Source: Ensifer sp. BR816 (lineage in GTDB: Bacteria; Pseudomonadota; Alphaproteobacteria; Rhizobiales; Rhizobiaceae). Taken from it: 64,000 bases of DNA. Positions 21,466-36,346 of this stretch are shown in pieces. The stretch covers positions 3,989,342 to 4,053,341 of the forward strand of contig NZ_KB905370.1 of assembly GCF_000378985.1 (NCBI RefSeq). The letters are read 5' to 3'. The notes under the pieces were generated by a model. That model saw only the letters and a list, made by a program, of their open reading frames with translations. It had not been told where the DNA came from and did no database searches. Each line of letters starts with the position of its first letter. The first letter of the stretch is position 1. The translations under genes were made by a program, and so were the position numbers.

Positions 21466-22128
21466 TCAATCGCCGGAATAGCGCTCCTCGCGCCAGGGAT
21501 CGCCGCGCATGTGGTAGCCGTTCTTCTCCCAGAAACCGGCCGTGTCGCGGCTGCGAAAATCGATGCGCGTCAGCCACTTGGCGCTCTTCCAGAGATAGAG
21601 GTGGGGGACGATCAGGCGCATCGGTCCGCCATGCGGGCGCGTGATCGGCGCGCCTTCCCAGCTCGTCGCAAGGATCGCGTCCTCGGCGGCGAAATCGGCA
21701 AGCGGCAGGTTGGTCGTATAGCCGTCAAAGCTCGTCAGCATGACGTATTCGGCGTCCGGCATGGGCGTGACCCGATCGAGAAGATCGCGCGTCGCGACAC
21801 CTTGCCAGCGGTTGTCGTAGCGAGACCAGGTCGTCACGCAATGGATGTCGGAGAGGCTTTCCGTTTGCGGCAGGGCCTGGAAGGCCTTCCAGTCGAGCGA
21901 CAGCGGGCGCTCGACTGAACCGGTCACATCGAGCCGCCAGGTATCGAGCGCCATATGCGGCTGTTGCCCGAGATCGAGAACGGGCCAATCCTTGACGAGA
22001 TGCTGGCCGGGCGGCAGACGCTCCGTTTCCGGGCGCGCCACGCGGCCGGTCAGGAACTTGCCGTCGGCAGCCCAGCGCCGCTTGGTGGATGTCAGCTTCG
22101 TCTCCGGTACCGATTCGTCGTCGACCAT
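21466..22128 (-). CDS. Sulfite-oxidase-type molybdopterin-binding oxidoreductase
   Basis: 220 aa, a single oxidoreductase molybdopterin-binding domain. Cys97 in LSDIHCVTTWSRYDNRWQG is the expected Mo ligand, followed by the HGGPMRLIVPHLYLWKSAKW motif. There is no signal peptide and no dimerisation or heme domain, unlike MsrP (Tat-exported) or classical sulfite oxidase, so a cytoplasmic minimal version is suggested. Start at MVDDESVPE; the frame extends 23 codons further but without a ribosome site. Substrate unknown. No partner heme or membrane subunit gene is adjacent. Confidence 0.85.
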   Translation of the reverse strand: MVDDESVPETKLTSTKRRWAADGKFLTGRVARPETERLPPGQHLVKDWPVLDLGQQPHMALDTWRLDVTGSVERPLSLDWKAFQALPQTESLSDIHCVTTWSRYDNRWQGVATRDLLDRVTPMPDAEYVMLTSFDGYTTNLPLADFAAEDAILATSWEGAPITRPHGGPMRLIVPHLYLWKSAKWLTRIDFRSRDTAGFWEKNGYHMRGDPWREERYSGD

Positions 22129-22563
22129 GTTGCACCCATCCCGTTTTTTGGTCTTTAAAGGCTGATTTGAGGCTCGCTGAGCTGCCGCGTCAAGCAAGCG
22201 TTCCGACCAATGAGGGCCTGCGTCTTTCGAGCTAAGCCAAAAGGATGAGGCTCGATTGACTATCGGCGTCTGCCGTGACAGTCTTTGTTGCAGTGCAGCA
22301 ATGCAGCTTTATCGCACGGTCACCCTGCTCGGTGGAGGTTCACTCTCTTGCGGCCGGATGAACAGGCTTCTAAGTCCTTGGCGACCTCCGCGCCGGTCGC
22401 TTCGGCGCCACTCGAGCACGCCTCGAAATCGCAGGTTGCGCCGGCCGGTCGCCGGGCGACCCAACAATTGCCGTCATTCTGGAGTTGATGCGTCCCGACT
22501 CGTCCATTTGGTGCTGCGCCCTGCGCTCACGGTGAAAACGTCTCTATGAAGGAGAAATGCGGT
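22129..22563. other. Intergenic region before the polysaccharide genes
   Basis: 434 bp between the Mo-oxidoreductase and the first glycosyltransferase. Short frames here have no ribosome sites or recognisable product. An AAGGAGA element at 22549-22555 serves the next gene. I see no convincing hairpin or repeat. It likely holds divergent promoters. Confidence 0.5.
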
Positions 22564-24842: not shown

Positions 24843-26302
24843 ACAAGGAAAACCTTCAGTTCGGCCGCGTCGCGCTGCGCGGTGGGCTGGTGACCGGCGG
24901 CGCTCAAATTCTGCGCATGGTCATCCAGTTCGTCTCGGTCGTGGTGCTTGCCCGGCTGCTCGCGCCGGAGGATTTCGGTCTCGTCGCCTCGGTGAGCCCG
25001 ATCGTCGCCTTTGTCGGGCTGTTCCAGAATCTCGGCCTGCAGCAGGCGGTCATCCAGCGCAAGGAGATCGGCGAGAAAGAGCTCAACCAGGTCTTCTGGA
25101 TCAGCACTCTCGTCGGCCTCCTCTGCACCCTCGTCGTCGTTGCCCTTTCCCCCGCCATTGCCGCCTTCTACGGCGACCAGCGGATGACGGCGATCGCCAT
25201 TGCTGCGGCCCTGCCGCTGCTGCTCGGCAGCCTTGCGGCCCTACCGCTCGCCTTGATGAACCGGCATCTGAAGTTCGGCCAGCTGGCGCTCAACGATGTC
25301 TATGCCGCGGTCGTGGGGCTCCTGGTCACCGCTGCGGCCGCCTATTACGGCATGGGATACTGGTCGCTGGTGATCGGCCCGGCAGCGTCGGCCGCCGTGG
25401 CCCTTCTCGCCGCCTGGTGGGCGACGCGATGGATGCCCGGCCGGCCGGCCTTCCGGATCGACCGTGAGATCATCTCCTTCGGCGCCAATCTCACCGGCTT
25501 CAACCTCGTCAATTTCTTCTCGCGCAATCTCGACAACATCCTGATCGGCAAGTTCTCCGGACCGGTCGAGCTCGGCTATTACGACCGCGCCTACAAGCTC
25601 CTGCTCTTCCCGCTGCAGAACATCACCCAGCCGCTCTCACGCGTGATGATCCCGCTGATGAGCCGCATCCAGGAGGACAAGGCGCGGTTTCGCGATATCT
25701 ACATGCGGACCAACTGGCTGCTGGCGGCAGTGACGATGCCGGGCATTGCGGCGCTGACCTGTGCCGCGGAGCCGACCGTCAGCCTCCTCTTCGGCGCGCA
25801 ATGGCTGCCGGTCGCGCCGATCTTCGCCTGGCTCGGGGTTGCCAGCCTCATGCAGCCGGTATCGAGCACGACCGGCTGGATCTTCATCTGCCAGGGCGAG
25901 ACGAAGACGATGTTCCGCTGGGGGATCTATTCGTCGCTGACGACGGTGCTTTCCTTCGTCGTCGGCCTGCAATGGGGTGCGATCGGCGTCGCAGCCGCCT
26001 ATGCCATCAGCGGCTACGTGCTGCGCGTCCCGGTACTTGCCTGGTTGTTGCAGCGGGTCGGGCCGGTCTCGGCCCGGGATTTCCTCTACGTCCAGGGCCT
26101 CTTCGTTCTTTCGGCGCTCGTCGCCTGGTTCGGCTACCGGCTGCTGCCGATAGCCCTGACCGGCTCCTCGAACGTCGTCGCGCTGGCTCTGGCGATCTGC
26201 CTCAACTACGGGCTGGCGCTGCTGTTCGCGCTTGCCCTACGCGCGCCGCGCCAGGTCCTCTTCGAGATCCTGACGAAGGGCCTGGGCGCCGTTCGCCGAT
26301 GA
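24839..26302 (+). CDS. Polysaccharide flippase, MOP superfamily (Wzx-like)
   Basis: 487 aa with about 12-14 hydrophobic segments. The N-terminus (LRGGLVTGGAQILRMVIQFVSVVVLARLLAPEDFGLVA) and the FSRNLDNILIGKFSGPVELGYYDRAYKLLLFPLQNI region are typical of lipopolysaccharide/teichuronic-type exporters. It would flip undecaprenyl-linked oligosaccharide across the inner membrane. Start TTG 24839 overlaps the upstream stop and has CGAGG 9 nt before it; the frame is open much further upstream but that lies inside the GT4 gene. Its last 66 bp overlap the 3' end of the convergent pyruvyl transferase. Confidence 0.9.
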   Translation: MNKENLQFGRVALRGGLVTGGAQILRMVIQFVSVVVLARLLAPEDFGLVASVSPIVAFVGLFQNLGLQQAVIQRKEIGEKELNQVFWISTLVGLLCTLVVVALSPAIAAFYGDQRMTAIAIAAALPLLLGSLAALPLALMNRHLKFGQLALNDVYAAVVGLLVTAAAAYYGMGYWSLVIGPAASAAVALLAAWWATRWMPGRPAFRIDREIISFGANLTGFNLVNFFSRNLDNILIGKFSGPVELGYYDRAYKLLLFPLQNITQPLSRVMIPLMSRIQEDKARFRDIYMRTNWLLAAVTMPGIAALTCAAEPTVSLLFGAQWLPVAPIFAWLGVASLMQPVSSTTGWIFICQGETKTMFRWGIYSSLTTVLSFVVGLQWGAIGVAAAYAISGYVLRVPVLAWLLQRVGPVSARDFLYVQGLFVLSALVAWFGYRLLPIALTGSSNVVALALAICLNYGLALLFALALRAPRQVLFEILTKGLGAVRR

Positions 26303-27580
26303 ACCTGCCATCAGCGGGCGGATGAAGTCGGCCGCCGACATCGCCGAGGCGTGCTCCTCCAGTACCGCCTTGAGGCTGACCGCGCGATAGCGGTCGAGAT
26401 CGCCGGCGAAGCGGTCGAGCTTGCCGAGCGCCTCCTCGGGCGTCACCGTGTCGATATCGAGCAGGACATCCTCGACGCCGATCCGCTTGGCGACTTCCTT
26501 GGTCTTGAACTCGTAGGCGATCGGCAGCACCGGCGTGCCGACGCAGAGCGACATGATCATCATGTGCATGCGCGTCGCCACGACGAAATCGAGCTCCCTG
26601 GCGATCGCCATCAACTGTTCCGGCGTGTGGAACGCCGCGTCGACCGTGACGTGCTCGGCAATTTCGGGCGCGAGGCCCGAGACGATCAGTTTCGCCGTCT
26701 TCGAATCGTCGTGGGCATATTCCGGCACGCCCTGGCAGGTCGAAATGAAGGTGACCTCCTTGCCGTGGTCGCGCACGAGCCTCGTCGCAATCTCGCGGAT
26801 CGACTGGATGTAGCGGTCCATGCCGCCGCCACCGCCCTGGACGTAGTGCCAGTGCCGCACGGAGATGCCGACGCGGCCCGTCGGCGCCGGCCGGCCGATC
26901 GTCAGCAGTGCCTTGATCCGCTCCACGTCGGCGAGCGCAAAGACGGAATCGGCGACCACATGGCACTTCGACGGGTCGTCGACGAGGTCGAGAATGTGGT
27001 CGCGGGAACGAACATCGCGCAACAGGATCAGCGGGCTGCGGTTGAAAACCGGCGGCAGGTTGCGGCGGTTGTAGGGCTTTGCAAAGGGGCCGAGCGACTG
27101 GGTGAAGAAGATGGTCTTCTTGCCGAGCATCTCCGCAAGCTTGAACTGGTTGATGCGCCGCTCGAGCGAATAGTTTTCGACGAGATAGGTGCCGCCGGTG
27201 GTGATCACCATATCGGCGTCCTTGTAGAGCGCCAGGCTCTTGCGGTCCGCCTCGCTGAAGAAACGCCGATCGAGGTAGTTGCCGCTGCCGAGATGGCGCA
27301 GAGCCTGAAACACGGCCTGATTGTAGACCTGCTTCAGTGCGTTCTTGACGGTGTTGTCGTCGTATTTGTACTTGAAGATCGATTCCGACGGCAGCTTCCT
27401 GAGCTCGATGTCCGGATATTGCTCCTTCGGATAAAGCCGCGCCGCAACCTCCGGCTGGCTGTCGAACACCAGGAATTCCAGGTCCTCGTTCGCCACCGAT
27501 CTCAGGATATGCCTGATCGCCAGAAGAATGGCCGCGTCGCCGGTGTTCAAGCAGACGGTATTCTCGACTACAACTTTCAT
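26237..27580 (-). CDS. Polysaccharide pyruvyl transferase family protein
   Basis: 447 aa. Motifs of the family include NTGDAAILLAIRHIL at the N-terminus, ADMVITTGGTYLVENY, FFTQSLGPF, ILLRDVRSRDHI, GISVRHWHY and the C-terminal ATRMHMMIMSLCVGTPVLPIAYEFKT, where the RxH motif binds the substrate. Such enzymes add pyruvate ketals from phosphoenolpyruvate to sugars, giving acidic exopolysaccharide, and fit the adjacent glycosyltransferase/flippase block. Transcribed toward it, with a 66-bp tail overlap. A hairpin lies in the leader (27602-27634). Confidence 0.9.
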   Translation of the reverse strand: MKVVVENTVCLNTGDAAILLAIRHILRSVANEDLEFLVFDSQPEVAARLYPKEQYPDIELRKLPSESIFKYKYDDNTVKNALKQVYNQAVFQALRHLGSGNYLDRRFFSEADRKSLALYKDADMVITTGGTYLVENYSLERRINQFKLAEMLGKKTIFFTQSLGPFAKPYNRRNLPPVFNRSPLILLRDVRSRDHILDLVDDPSKCHVVADSVFALADVERIKALLTIGRPAPTGRVGISVRHWHYVQGGGGGMDRYIQSIREIATRLVRDHGKEVTFISTCQGVPEYAHDDSKTAKLIVSGLAPEIAEHVTVDAAFHTPEQLMAIARELDFVVATRMHMMIMSLCVGTPVLPIAYEFKTKEVAKRIGVEDVLLDIDTVTPEEALGKLDRFAGDLDRYRAVSLKAVLEEHASAMSAADFIRPLMAGSSANGAQALRQDLEEDLARRA

Positions 27581-27634: not shown

Positions 27635-27966
27635 GCCGCTTGCGATGGAATCGTCCGCATCCCAGGGACAACCCGCAATAGCGTTCTGTCGCCAAGTTTT
27701 GGTGAATTCATGGCCGCGCGGAGGATTTTTGCCGCACTGCAGCATCGGTGCAATATATTCGCGATAAGACGGCAGCCGAGCGCGCTCCCTTTCAGCAAGG
27801 CATACGGACTTTGGTCCGACTCCGGGAGGCGCTTCGGTCGCCAAAGGTCCGATCCGCTGCGATGTCGGTTGCCGTATGGTGCGTTCGACACGTATTGCGG
27901 CAATCGATGCTGCTGAACGAAACGGTCAATCACCCTTTTGAGACCATTCTATCGGGATCTTCGGCT

Positions 27967-34890: not shown

Positions 34891-35175
34891 CTAGGAGATA
34901 ATCCGAAACCCCGCCGGCGTCTCCGTCGAGGATGCCTCCTCGCTCGCGACGTTGGCAACGGCGGCACCCGGCGGGCCCTTCCAGAACCGGCCGAGCATCG
35001 TCTCGACGGCCGTATCCGCCCCGGCGATCAAGGCGGTCACCGAACCGTCGCTTTCGTTGCGCACCCAGCCGACAAGTCCGAGGCGTTCGGCCTCGTCGCG
35101 CGTCCAGACACGGAAGCACACCCCTTGCACCCTGCCGGTGATCCGCACCAAAGCCGCCTTGCGTTCATCCGCCAC
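34891..35175 (-). CDS. acyP: Acylphosphatase
   Basis: 94 aa, usual length for the family. The phosphate cradle and catalytic Arg are in GRVQGVCFRVWTRDEAERLGLVGWVRNESDGSV (catalytic Arg in CFRVW, Asn in VRNESDG). It hydrolyses acyl phosphates such as carbamoyl or acetyl phosphate. The start is GTG 35175 with GGGAGG 5 nt before; an ATG further upstream would add a basic tail not seen in the family. Single gene. Confidence 0.92.
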   Translation of the reverse strand: MADERKAALVRITGRVQGVCFRVWTRDEAERLGLVGWVRNESDGSVTALIAGADTAVETMLGRFWKGPPGAAVANVASEEASSTETPAGFRIIS

Positions 35176-35357
35176 GACCGCCTCCCTTGTTCGTTCTTTC
35201 CGAATCTGGCGCAGCTCGCCCCGAAGGCAAGCCATTGAAGCGGGCCGCCTGCGGCTTGCCCTATCGCCCTCGCACTTCCAGATCATTTTTTACCGGTCAG
35301 ACAAAATAATTTGAATTTCGGGCTTGCAATTGCTGCGATGCAACATTATTGTATGAC

Positions 35358-35476
35358 TTATCGATCGAGCACTCCTCCTCCCAGCTCTATCGAGGGATCG
35401 GCAACCCTCCTCCTCCCAGTTGCCGGTCAGGATCGAAAGCCCGGCGCACCTCCTCCCGCGCCGGGCTTTCTCTTTT
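35358..35476 (+). ncRNA. Alpha-r14-family small RNA (NfeR1-like)
   Basis: About 119 nt with three hairpins. Stem 1: GAGC 35367-35370 with GCTC 35384-35387, extended by CGAT/ATCG. Stem 2: 10 bp at 35396-35405 with 35419-35428 (one G-U pair). Stem 3: 11 bp at 35437-35447 with 35458-35468, followed by TTTCTCTTTTT, a rho-independent terminator. Each loop carries CTCCTCCC, an anti-Shine-Dalgarno sequence. This triple-loop design is the hallmark of alpha-r14 sRNAs, which repress mRNA translation in rhizobia. A promoter is visible: CTTGCA at 35323 and TATTGT at 35347 (18-bp spacer). A protein frame crosses the region but has no support. Confidence 0.85.
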
Positions 35477-35576
35477 TGATCTACCCACCTTTCATAGCAT
35501 CCTGGAAGACGGCCAGCGCCACGATGCTCGAATCCGGGCATCATCGCGCTAATTTCGGTGATATCGTCAGCCGATT

Positions 35577-35603
35577 GGGAACGTTTCGCGCGATGCGGCA
35601 TCC
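35577..35603 (+). promoter_or_regulatory. ECF-type promoter motif, copy 1 (before the sigma gene)
   Basis: GGGAACGTTTCG-N9-GCATCC, with 21 bp from GGGAAC to GCATCC, 34 bp before the sigma factor ATG. The same motif with identical spacing recurs at 36320-36346. Rhizobial ECF sigma factors commonly use a GGAAC -35 element, so autoregulation is likely. Confidence 0.75.
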
Positions 35604-35636
35604 AATGCGCGACACCATGACCATGGGGAGCCAATC

Positions 35637-36317
35637 ATGCCCATCGTTGAGACCCGCCATCGCCTGAAGAGCCCGCCCGGTGCCGAGGAAATCGAAGGCT
35701 TTCGCGCCGTCATGCAGGCGCATAACCGTAAACTCTATCGGATCGCGCGGAGCATCGTTCGTAGCAACAATGATGCCGAAGACGTGCTGCAGGAGGCTTA
35801 TGTCCGCGCCTTCACGCATTTTGACGAATTCCGTGGCGACGCCGCAATCACGACCTGGCTTGCCCGCATCGTCATCAACGAGGCGCTCGGCCGTCTGCGC
35901 AAGAGCCGGCGCCAGATGGCGCTAGTCGAGAGCATGCGGCAATCGCATCAGGCGGAGATCATCGCCTTCCCGCTGAACGCAAATGTGAGCGACCCGGAAA
36001 AGACCATGGCACAACGACAGATTCTCGACCTTGTCGAAAGGCTGACGGATCATCTGCCGGACGCTTACCGGAGCGTTTTCGTGCTGCGCGTCATCGAAGG
36101 GCTCAACAACGAGGAGACCGCTTCCCTGCTCGGGCTCCGCCCCGAGACCGTCCGCACGCGGCTGCATCGGGCGCGCCAGTTGCTGAAGCAGCAACTGGAA
36201 AAGCAGATCGGCCCGGTCCTGCTCGATGCCTTTCCCTTCGCCGGGAAACGCTGCGAGCGCCTGACCGAGGCCGTCCTCGCCCGCATCTCAGGACAACCGA
36301 TAGAAGCCGACAAATAA
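35637..36317 (+). CDS. ECF RNA polymerase sigma factor
   Basis: 226 aa. Sigma region 2 at about residues 25-95 (LYRIARSIVRSNNDAEDVLQEAYVRAFTHFDEFRGDAAITTWLARIVINEALGR in pieces) and region 4 at about 140-190 (LPDAYRSVFVLRVIEGLNNEETASLLGLRPETVRTRLHRARQLLK in pieces), with a C-terminal tail FAGKRCERLTEAVLARISG typical of one rhizobial ECF group. It should direct polymerase to promoters of the GGGAACG type. GGGGAG precedes the ATG by 6 nt. No anti-sigma gene is adjacent; the next genes encode two secreted proteins under the same promoter motif. Confidence 0.95.
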   Translation: MPIVETRHRLKSPPGAEEIEGFRAVMQAHNRKLYRIARSIVRSNNDAEDVLQEAYVRAFTHFDEFRGDAAITTWLARIVINEALGRLRKSRRQMALVESMRQSHQAEIIAFPLNANVSDPEKTMAQRQILDLVERLTDHLPDAYRSVFVLRVIEGLNNEETASLLGLRPETVRTRLHRARQLLKQQLEKQIGPVLLDAFPFAGKRCERLTEAVLARISGQPIEADK

Positions 36318-36319
36318 TC

Positions 36320-36346
36320 GGGAACGTTTCGGCCGCCGAAGCATCC
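36320..36346 (+). promoter_or_regulatory. ECF-type promoter motif, copy 2 (before DUF4142 gene)
   Basis: GGGAACGTTTCG-N9-GCATCC, the same bases and spacing as the copy before the sigma gene, beginning 3 bp after the sigma stop and 52 bp before the DUF4142 ATG. It likely gives extra sigma-dependent expression of the two downstream genes. Confidence 0.75.

What the first reader, a model, noticed from the sequence alone, without database searches (positions are those of the whole stretch)
35358..35476. Small RNA with three anti-Shine-Dalgarno loops (alpha-r14 type)
Three stems each present CTCCTCCC in the loop, and the last is a rho-independent terminator. A sigma-70-like promoter lies upstream. 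This fits NfeR1-like alpha-r14 RNAs, which repress translation of many transport mRNAs in rhizobia. It sits next to an ECF sigma gene, 160 nt before its start, which could link the two.
Basis: partly seen in the sequence, partly recalled or inferred. Interest (0 to 1): 0.7.

Follow-up and report, generated by a model that had tools for sequence, protein, structure and literature searches.

The report
PHB-sensor-linked anti-Shine-Dalgarno small RNA
A nitrogen-fixing soil bacterium carries a small RNA that can probably block the start sites of many messages, and its promoter contains a likely binding site for a sensor of the cell's carbon-storage granules, which suggests that stored carbon controls when this RNA is made.

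Summary
Window 35356-35473 (+) matches Rfam ar14 (RF02344) at 107.9 bits against a gathering score of 58.8. It has three hairpins, each with CTCCTCCC in the loop, and ends in a terminator.

The window is Sinorhizobium. This copy is not the NfeR1 orthologue, which lies elsewhere in the genome, but the paralogue between acyP and rpoE8 (ECF29).

An ECF link is not supported. rpoE8 has its own conserved promoter, its start region is not an unusual target, and two genomes that lack rpoE8 there keep the RNA.

The new point is the promoter. Where NfeR1 has LsrB and NtrC boxes, this lineage has a PhaR (AniA) operator filling the spacer between -35 and -10 (35328-35348). PhaR senses polyhydroxybutyrate (PHB). 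In S. meliloti the corresponding site was shown by gel shift to bind PhaR, but was assigned to rpoE8/acyP (PMC12542648). The PhaR-repressed sRNA gene mmgR has the same layout.

Best reading: PhaR represses this sRNA, and PHB accumulation releases it to block ribosome-binding sites. Membership and the operator are well supported. The sign, the expression and the targets are inferred.

The parts
35323..35328 (+). -35 element CTTGCA of the sRNA promoter
   Evidence: Read from sequence. CTTG is invariant in 18 of 18 Sinorhizobium acyP-rpoE8 regions aligned. Below the threshold of the generic scan.
35328..35348 (+). PhaR (AniA) operator AATTGCTGCGATGCAACATTA, filling the -35/-10 spacer
   Evidence: Only match in the 64-kb window to the published S. 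meliloti PhaR consensus; 0.19 expected, 18 of 100 shuffles have at least one. Matrix score 23.2, inside the range of 15 gel-shift-positive training sites, 17.6-29.0. The aligned S. meliloti site is the one bound by PhaR in PMC12542648.
35347..35352 (+). -10 element TATTGT
   Evidence: Read from sequence; TATTGT, TATTAT or CATTGT across the 18 aligned sequences.
35358..35477 (+). alpha-r14 small RNA (Rfam model match 35356-35473; about 120 nt to the end of the U tract)
   Evidence: RF02344, 107.9 bits, E 5.5e-19; fold z -5.9; compensatory changes in orthologues and paralogues. The 5' end is inferred from the promoter.
35361..35393 (+). hairpin 1, loop with anti-Shine-Dalgarno motif 35375-35382
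   Evidence: 5 of its 9 pairs have changes on both sides among 17 orthologues, 93.4% of cells paired.
35396..35428 (+). hairpin 2, loop with anti-Shine-Dalgarno motif 35410-35417
   Evidence: all 10 pairs kept in 17 of 17 orthologues, no change on both sides there; compensatory changes among paralogues.
35435..35470 (+). hairpin 3 (terminator stem), loop with anti-Shine-Dalgarno motif 35450-35457, followed by a U-rich tail to 35477
   Evidence: 100% of cells paired, 2 of 13 pairs with changes on both sides.
35577..35605 (+). separate ECF29-type promoter of rpoE8 (GGGAAC ... GCATCCAA)
   Evidence: GGGAAC and GGCATCCAAT invariant in 18 of 18. Matches the S. meliloti rpoE8 promoter mapped in PMC6180224. 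Not part of the sRNA unit; given as boundary.
35637..36317 (+). neighbour: ECF sigma factor, orthologue of S. meliloti RpoE8 (SMb20592, ECF29)
   Evidence: Conserved neighbour, not functionally tied by the evidence here.
34891..35286 (-). divergent neighbour: acylphosphatase acyP (the likely start is a GTG at about 35175, inside this frame)
   Evidence: PF00708, NCBIfam PRK14425 from residue 39 of the long frame; start read by eye. Kept beside the sRNA in the two genomes without rpoE8.

Best explanation
The element is the gene of an alpha-r14 trans-acting small RNA, about 120 nt, transcribed from its own sigma-70-type promoter and ended by its third hairpin. Its three loops offer CCUCCUCCC to the purine-rich ribosome-binding sites of target mRNAs and so block translation, as shown for NfeR1. 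What sets this copy apart is its input. The spacer of its promoter is a PhaR/AniA operator, so PhaR bound there would shut it off. When PHB granules build up and titrate PhaR, the promoter would be freed and the RNA made, lowering uptake and other functions when carbon is stored. Shown: family membership, structure, conservation, and the operator's position and match. Shown by others for the S. meliloti orthologue: PhaR binding in vitro. Inferred: the sign (repression), expression under PHB-rich conditions, and the targets.
For: Family: Rfam match far above the gathering score and covariation.

Operator: a perfect 21-of-21 consensus match in the core promoter, the only one in 64 kb. The same pattern has 41 sites in the whole 6.95-Mb genome, against 27 for the reversed control.

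Identity with the tested site: the S. meliloti site AGATGCTGCACTGCAGCATTA lies 290 nt before rpoE8 in PMC12542648 Table 3. It lies exactly 290 nt before rpoE8 in L013, S. meliloti 4H41, and it starts 27 nt before the sRNA model start in the four fetched genus copies that carry the string. That paper rates His6-PhaR binding there 'Efficient'.

Conservation: the core TGC-N3-GCA is intact in 26 of 29 rpoE8-linked copies. 19 of the 29 pass a matrix built without this site, against 0.15 expected from resampled sequences, all 19 at position -28 or -27.

Contrast: the 59 NfeR1-locus copies (both members of the tandem pairs) have 0 PhaR core-promoter sites and 29 exact LsrB boxes (29 of 31 positions at -62 to -60), and 26 of 59 have NtrC-type boxes. 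The acyP/rpoE8 locus has 1 of 31 LsrB (off position) and 0 of 31 NtrC.

[quoted passage not shown] By published coordinates the mmgR PhaR site (3046679-3046699) covers -33 to -13 of the RNA start (3046712), the same layout as here. PhaR itself is present in 32 of 33 Sinorhizobium genomes; the one without is 70% complete.
Against: No expression data for this locus. A review says that of six S. meliloti copies only one was reliably detected by northern (PMC7143759); that fits repression but also disuse.

10 of 29 linked copies fall below the matrix threshold and 3 of 29 have a broken core (L114, L115, L117), so the operator is not universal.

What I saw of PMC12542648 does not show that this PhaR site controls any transcript of the intergenic region in vivo; its table lists rpoE8 as not detected and acyP as not regulated. 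An acyP reporter plasmid is listed in its methods, but I saw no result for it.

A scan of alpha-r15 promoters meant as a negative control was not negative: 17 of 30 reached the threshold, 7 at -60 and 10 at -100. So PhaR-like motifs in sRNA promoters are not specific to alpha-r14, and some may really be LsrB sites.

A consensus match turns up somewhere in 18 of 100 shuffles of the window, so the window match alone is modest; the case rests on its place and its conservation.
Confidence: 0.7

Rival explanations
1. It is simply another NfeR1: an LsrB-activated, NtrC-repressed nitrogen-responsive alpha-r14 sRNA.
For: Same family, same loops. In one genome (L098) TGCA-N6-GCAT overlaps the PhaR site.
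Against: The window has no LsrB box of either published form and no TGC-N11-GCA within 200 nt upstream. Over the locus LsrB is 1 of 31 and NtrC 0 of 31, against 29 of 59 and 26 of 59 at the NfeR1 locus. A separate copy in this genome (5556470, L185) has the exact TGCA-N6-GCAT box.
Confidence: 0.1
2. The sRNA and the ECF sigma factor form one regulatory module: RpoE8 transcribes the sRNA, or the sRNA controls rpoE8 as a leader or by pairing.
For: The sRNA lies directly upstream of rpoE8 in 29 of 30 genomes with the ECF and in 17 of 17 named Sinorhizobium loci (the two sets overlap). Two transcription starts were reported upstream of S. meliloti rpoE8, one without a recognised motif (PMC6180224).
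Against: There is no GGGAAC within 200 nt upstream of the sRNA, and rpoE8 has its own conserved GGGAAC/GCATCCAA promoter after the terminator. The sRNA-to-rpoE8 distance varies from 80 to 200 nt. The rpoE8 start region pairs with the loops at -9.8 kcal/mol, near the random median of -8.2. Two genomes without an ECF match at E 1e-50 (G021, G024), and with none in the stretch beside the sRNA, keep the sRNA, its operator and acyP. One with the ECF (G017) has no sRNA within about 690 nt upstream. 0 of 38 loci of ECF relatives outside Sinorhizobium have ar14 nearby.
Confidence: 0.07
3. A redundant or decaying duplicate with no function of its own.
For: Several copies per genome (4 here, up to 8 in the genus). 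Only one of six reliably detected by northern in S. meliloti. A few orthologues have loop changes (L018, L019, L020) or a shortened third loop (L008).
Against: Stems are kept by compensatory changes: 7 pairs and 14 cells, 0 of 500 shuffles as high. Apart from the exceptions named, loops, terminator and -35 are conserved across the genus, and the RNA is present where the neighbouring ECF is absent.
Confidence: 0.08
4. The PhaR operator serves the divergent acyP gene or rpoE8, and its place inside the sRNA promoter is incidental.
For: PMC12542648 assigned the site to those genes.
Against: It fits exactly between the sRNA's -35 and -10, at -28 or -27 in 19 of 19 matrix-positive linked copies. The table of that paper lists acyP as not regulated and rpoE8 as not detected. 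Eight further Sinorhizobium alpha-r14 copies at other loci, three of them alike in the printed upstream sequence (L145-L147), have PhaR sites at the same place.
Confidence: 0.1

Closest known systems
NfeR1 (SmelC397/Smr14C2) of S. meliloti, founder of the alpha-r14 family (PMC10746234)
   Same: Same Rfam family, three hairpins, identical anti-Shine-Dalgarno loop motif, last hairpin as terminator.
   Different: Different locus; no LsrB or NtrC boxes; PhaR operator in the core promoter; stem sequences differ.
The S. meliloti pSymB copy between acyP (SMb20590) and rpoE8 (SMb20592)
   Same: Direct orthologue: same neighbours, same promoter layout, PhaR site bound in vitro in PMC12542648.
   Different: What I saw of that study does not identify it as an sRNA promoter; I found no characterisation in the papers looked at. 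The operator letters differ outside the core.
MmgR (alpha-r8) of S. meliloti
   Same: An sRNA gene with a dyad between -35 and -10, repressed by AniA/PhaR and listed with an efficient PhaR site.
   Different: Unrelated RNA family (77 nt, Hfq-dependent), acting on phasins; also regulated by NtrC.
AbcR1/AbcR2 (alpha-r15)
   Same: Anti-Shine-Dalgarno sRNAs acting on transport mRNAs, predicted to share targets with NfeR1 (PMC8844928, passages).
   Different: Different Rfam family; AbcR1 responds to LsrB, AbcR2 to RpoH1.

Membership tests
alpha-r14 (Rfam RF02344) | Covariance-model score above the gathering score | tested here: met
   107.9 bits against 58.8, full-length model match
alpha-r14 (Rfam RF02344) | Three hairpins, each with CCUCCUCCC unpaired in the loop | tested here: met
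   covariation
alpha-r14 (Rfam RF02344) | RpoD promoter of the type CTTAGAC-N17-CTATAT | tested here: inconclusive
   CTTGCA-N18-TATTGT read by eye; generic scan negative; CTTG conserved 18 of 18
alpha-r14 (Rfam RF02344) | A transcript of about 115-125 nt, Hfq-independent | not testable with these tools
   No RNA data for this strain
NfeR1 orthology (as opposed to alpha-r14 paralogy) | LsrB box and NtrC box in the promoter | tested here: not met
   None in 200 nt upstream; locus-wide 1 of 31 and 0 of 31
PhaR (AniA) regulon | Operator matching WNWDDNYGCRNYGCRNHHWNW in the promoter | tested here: met
   21 of 21 positions at 35328-35348; matrix score 23.2
PhaR (AniA) regulon | PhaR protein encoded in the same genome | tested here: met
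   PF07879, E 5.5e-30, C1:1644089-1644268
PhaR (AniA) regulon | Binding to and control of the promoter in response to PHB | not testable with these tools
   In vitro binding reported for the S. meliloti orthologue only; in vivo control not seen
RpoE8 (ECF29) regulon | GGGAAC/GCATCCAA promoter upstream of the sRNA | tested here: not met
   No GGGAAC within 200 nt upstream of the sRNA; motif present at 35577 before rpoE8 and at 36320 before the next gene

The most novel reading that the evidence does not exclude
The anti-Shine-Dalgarno sRNAs of the Rhizobiaceae are wired in part to the PHB sensor PhaR. Paralogues with identical 'output' loops are switched by different inputs: NfeR1 by nitrogen (NtrC, LsrB), the acyP/rpoE8 copy and some copies at other loci by PhaR in the core promoter, and further alpha-r14 and alpha-r15 copies by an upstream element that reads as a merged LsrB/PhaR site. 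Carbon stored in granules would then gate a bank of translation-blocking RNAs, and paralogues thought silent may only be waiting for PHB.
Probability: 0.35. Interest if true: 0.75.

Novelty: new variant of a known kind. Interest (0 to 1): 0.55.

Why it matters
alpha-r14 RNAs are multicopy, and the functional work I saw concerns one copy, NfeR1. If this lineage is PhaR-controlled, it would explain why it looks silent in ordinary media and would give a purpose to a PhaR site that was bound in vitro without a known regulated gene. It would also join carbon storage and translational control of uptake in legume symbionts. It is cheap to test: one promoter fusion and one northern in S. meliloti phaR and phbC mutants.

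Tried and rejected
ECF link: tested by promoters, pairing energy, synteny and loss patterns; rejected.

Targets near by: rpoE8 orthologues pair at -7.1 to -15.5 kcal/mol, near random for most. Among nine start regions tried in the window, acyP pairs best (-19.0; start taken 3 nt off the likely GTG; random 1% quantile -19.1), then pcaF (-18.0) and pcaI (-16.2). This may only reflect strong Shine-Dalgarno sequences; not followed.

Negative control that failed: alpha-r15 promoters, 17 of 30 at threshold. The LsrB consensus GCAT-N3-TG-N3-T of AbcR1 (PMC8844928) overlaps many upstream PhaR-like sites, so I did not claim the -56 element of other alpha-r14 copies as PhaR. In one search, of 60 other Sinorhizobium copies 24 have the upstream PhaR-like site without an exact LsrB box, 8 have both, 8 have the core-promoter site, 2 LsrB only (L133, L161, which look NfeR1-type) and 18 neither. 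Of 103 other Rhizobiaceae copies 79 have neither, though some of these are four-hairpin copies whose site lies further up than the bins used.

One search did not list all its matches, so weaker copies were not fetched. Of the copies listed only the 27 new loci given with it (L186-L212) and 60 further copies were scanned, and it did not list all either. In position counts, copies with under 110 nt upstream were dropped (one in the family set), as were exact duplicates only. Three model hits were left out as partial or weak: second hits of L135, L206 and L236. Of the matches only the 30 given as loci were scanned. Shuffles in my scripts are first-order Markov resamplings, not exact dinucleotide shuffles.

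The order-level search (32 of 101 genomes with a match, 11 over the cut-off) was not scanned for operators.

Full report
1. The thing itself. Window 35356-35473 on the + strand matches Rfam ar14 (RF02344) over the full model at 107.9 bits, E 5.5e-19; the gathering score is 58.8. It is the only Rfam match above gathering score in the 64 kb. CTCCTCCC stands in each of the three loops. The strand folds at -53.3 kcal/mol, z -5.9, with 0 of 200 shuffles as good.

2. Structure support. In 17 orthologues (the window plus 16 of the 17 named Sinorhizobium loci; L015 was left out of the alignment) 98.2% of pair cells are standard. Seven pairs and 14 cells change on both sides, and 0 of 500 shuffles reach this; the count of further pair types does not exceed shuffles. 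Hairpin 1 has most of the changes (5 of 9 pairs); its outermost pair is not standard in 10 of 16 cells. Across 20 more diverse copies, 16 of 22 predicted pairs have compensatory changes (hairpin 1 was not in that consensus).

3. Where it is. The named relatives of the neighbouring ECF protein with highest identity are Sinorhizobium (92% in S. americanum). The genome has 6.95 Mb in three contigs and four ar14 matches: this one, 5556470 (107.6 bits), 891533 (86.1) and 1398275 (40.6, below gathering). Neighbours are acyP (divergent), and downstream on the same strand an ECF sigma factor, a DUF4142 protein and a cupredoxin. This is the order acyP, rpoE8, SMb20593, amcY of S. meliloti pSymB (PMC6180224, passages; pSymB).

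4. Synteny. ar14 stands upstream of the ECF gene in 17 of 17 named Sinorhizobium loci and in 0 of 38 loci of ECF relatives with other names (flanks up to 3 kb, some shorter). In a genus-wide search 33 of 33 genomes have ar14 and 30 of 33 have the ECF at E 1e-50 or better. Upstream stretches of all 30 were examined: 29 have ar14 and one (G017, L107, about 690 nt) does not. Two genomes without the ECF (G021, G024) keep the RNA beside acyP and pcaF, with no ECF in the stretch fetched. The third genome without an ECF match, G030, is 70% complete.

5. The ECF link. In S. meliloti a start upstream of rpoE8 was mapped with GGGAAC/GCATCCAA (PMC6180224, passages). The window has this at 35577-35605, after the sRNA terminator, and no GGGAAC within 200 nt upstream of the sRNA. 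GGGAAC and GGCATCCAAT are invariant in 18 of 18. The rpoE8 start region pairs with the loops at -9.8 kcal/mol; random 33-mers have a median of -8.2 and a 5% quantile of -15.2. The two are neighbours with separate promoters. The same paper reports a second start upstream of rpoE8 without a recognised motif; it may be the sRNA's, which I could not check because supplements were not available.

6. The promoter. A search for the published S. meliloti PhaR consensus (PMC12542648, sections 18 part 1 and 21 and passages) finds one site in the window, 35328-35348, where 0.19 are expected and 18 of 100 shuffles have one or more. It fills the 18-nt spacer of the sRNA promoter. The paper lists AGATGCTGCACTGCAGCATTA on pSymB at 290 nt before rpoE8, also as the acyP site, with efficient binding of His6-PhaR; its proteome column says rpoE8 not detected and acyP not regulated. 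In S. meliloti 4H41 (L013) this string starts 290 nt before rpoE8, inside the promoter of the sRNA. A word search of the paper's main text found no 'sRNA' and no 'NfeR1', and its three 'small RNA' hits concern MmgR. Another of its predicted, untested sites, at SMc02855/SMc02856, also falls upstream of an alpha-r14 copy: the SMc02855 string starts 56 nt before the model start in four fetched copies.

7. How general. In 147 distinct Sinorhizobium copies with enough upstream sequence, 79 have the core YGCRNYGCR within 110 nt; resampled sequences give a mean of 20.9 and a maximum of 31 in 100 rounds. There are 90 cores against 7 of the reversed control. They pile up at -22/-21 (34) and -50/-49 (31). 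In the 103 copies of the wider family sample 50 have a core (mean 13.4, maximum 22), 55 cores against 7, mainly at -49 (13) and -88 to -86 (13). With a matrix trained on 15 gel-shift-positive sites, this locus left out, 19 of 29 rpoE8-linked copies, 47 of 62 other Sinorhizobium copies, 3 of 59 NfeR1-locus copies and 26 of 103 family-sample copies reach the lowest training score; resampled expectations are 0.05-0.15. The 62 include the two copies beside acyP without an ECF.

8. Two kinds of site. The upstream site (-56) of many copies overlaps the LsrB consensus GCAT-N3-TG-N3-T known from AbcR1 (PMC8844928, passages), so it cannot be given to PhaR alone. The core-promoter site is different. At the acyP/rpoE8 locus 21 of 31 copies have it, LsrB boxes are rare (1 of 31, off position) and NtrC-type boxes absent (0 of 31). 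At the NfeR1 locus it is 0 of 59, with 29 of 59 exact LsrB boxes and 26 of 59 NtrC-type boxes. A scan of alpha-r15 promoters, meant as a negative control, gave 17 of 30 at the threshold. This weakens any claim that PhaR-like sites mark alpha-r14 alone, and it leaves open a wider PhaR or LsrB network.

9. Sign. [quoted passage not shown] By published coordinates the mmgR site covers -33 to -13 of the RNA start (site 3046679-3046699, RNA from 3046712); here it covers -28 to -8 of the model start, or about -30 to -10 of the inferred start. PMC12542648 found its motif enriched in the module that behaves as PhaR-repressed. Repression is therefore the likely sign. It would also fit the report that only one of six S. 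meliloti copies is reliably seen by northern (PMC7143759, passages).

10. Exceptions. The core is broken in 3 of 29 linked copies and 10 of 29 miss the threshold. Nine of these ten share an altered promoter of the form CTTGAAGG...CCATTGTATGA or close to it (L095 to L119), so the site was weakened in part of the genus.

11. Literature. Searches for PhaR/AniA with NfeR1, r14 or anti-Shine-Dalgarno and with sRNA terms, and for SMb20592 and SMb20590/SMb20591, showed no paper linking PhaR to alpha-r14. I saw these as listings, with passages of PMC10746234 (and its section 5), PMC8844928, PMC7143759, PMC8401924, PMC6180224, PMC3927594 (and its section 21), PMC2873474 and PMC12542648. The library is open-access only; the 2017 NfeR1 paper and the 2018 mmgR paper were not read (known through citing papers).

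12. Verdict. The RNA is a new member of a known family. Its wiring to the PHB sensor is a new variant of a known kind of control, with in vitro support from others for the orthologue, and it is testable at once.

Noticed in passing
window 22283-22303: Second strong PhaR-type site (matrix 24.3), between the start of a - strand gene (21466-22197) and a + strand gene at 22546 that looks by eye like a glycosyltransferase (no family search). PhaR controls exopolysaccharide genes in S. meliloti (PMC12542648).
   Followed up: partly
window 27727-27747: Third PhaR-type site (matrix 18.7), about 150 nt before a - strand gene (26237-27580) that looks by eye like a polysaccharide pyruvyltransferase (no family search).
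   Followed up: partly
window 36320-36346: Near-perfect copy of the rpoE8 promoter motif right after the ECF stop codon, before the DUF4142 gene, as reported without explanation for S. meliloti.
   Followed up: partly
L004 (own genome C1:1398275-1398388): Degenerate fourth alpha-r14-like copy (40.6 bits, below gathering) whose third loop no longer has the full anti-Shine-Dalgarno motif; a neighbour looks by eye like phosphoenolpyruvate carboxylase.
   Followed up: no
L002/L185 (own genome C1:5556470): 29 other genus genomes showed two alpha-r14 copies in tandem at the NfeR1 locus; this genome shows only one there.
   Followed up: partly
own genome contig C1 (6.13 Mb): Carries both the NfeR1 locus, chromosomal in S. 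meliloti, and the pSymB acyP-rpoE8 region, suggesting that the second large replicon is fused to the chromosome here (also in G008, contig of 6.48 Mb).
   Followed up: no
L222, L223, L249, L250 and similar (other Rhizobiaceae): Copies with an extra anti-Shine-Dalgarno hairpin at the 5' side (four-hairpin form, read by eye); their PhaR-like core at about -87 of the model would be about -49 of the longer RNA.
   Followed up: partly
L301-L330 (alpha-r15 loci): alpha-r15 (AbcR-family) promoters also carry PhaR-like sites at fixed positions: 7 of 30 reach the matrix threshold at -60 and 10 of 30 at -100.
   Followed up: partly
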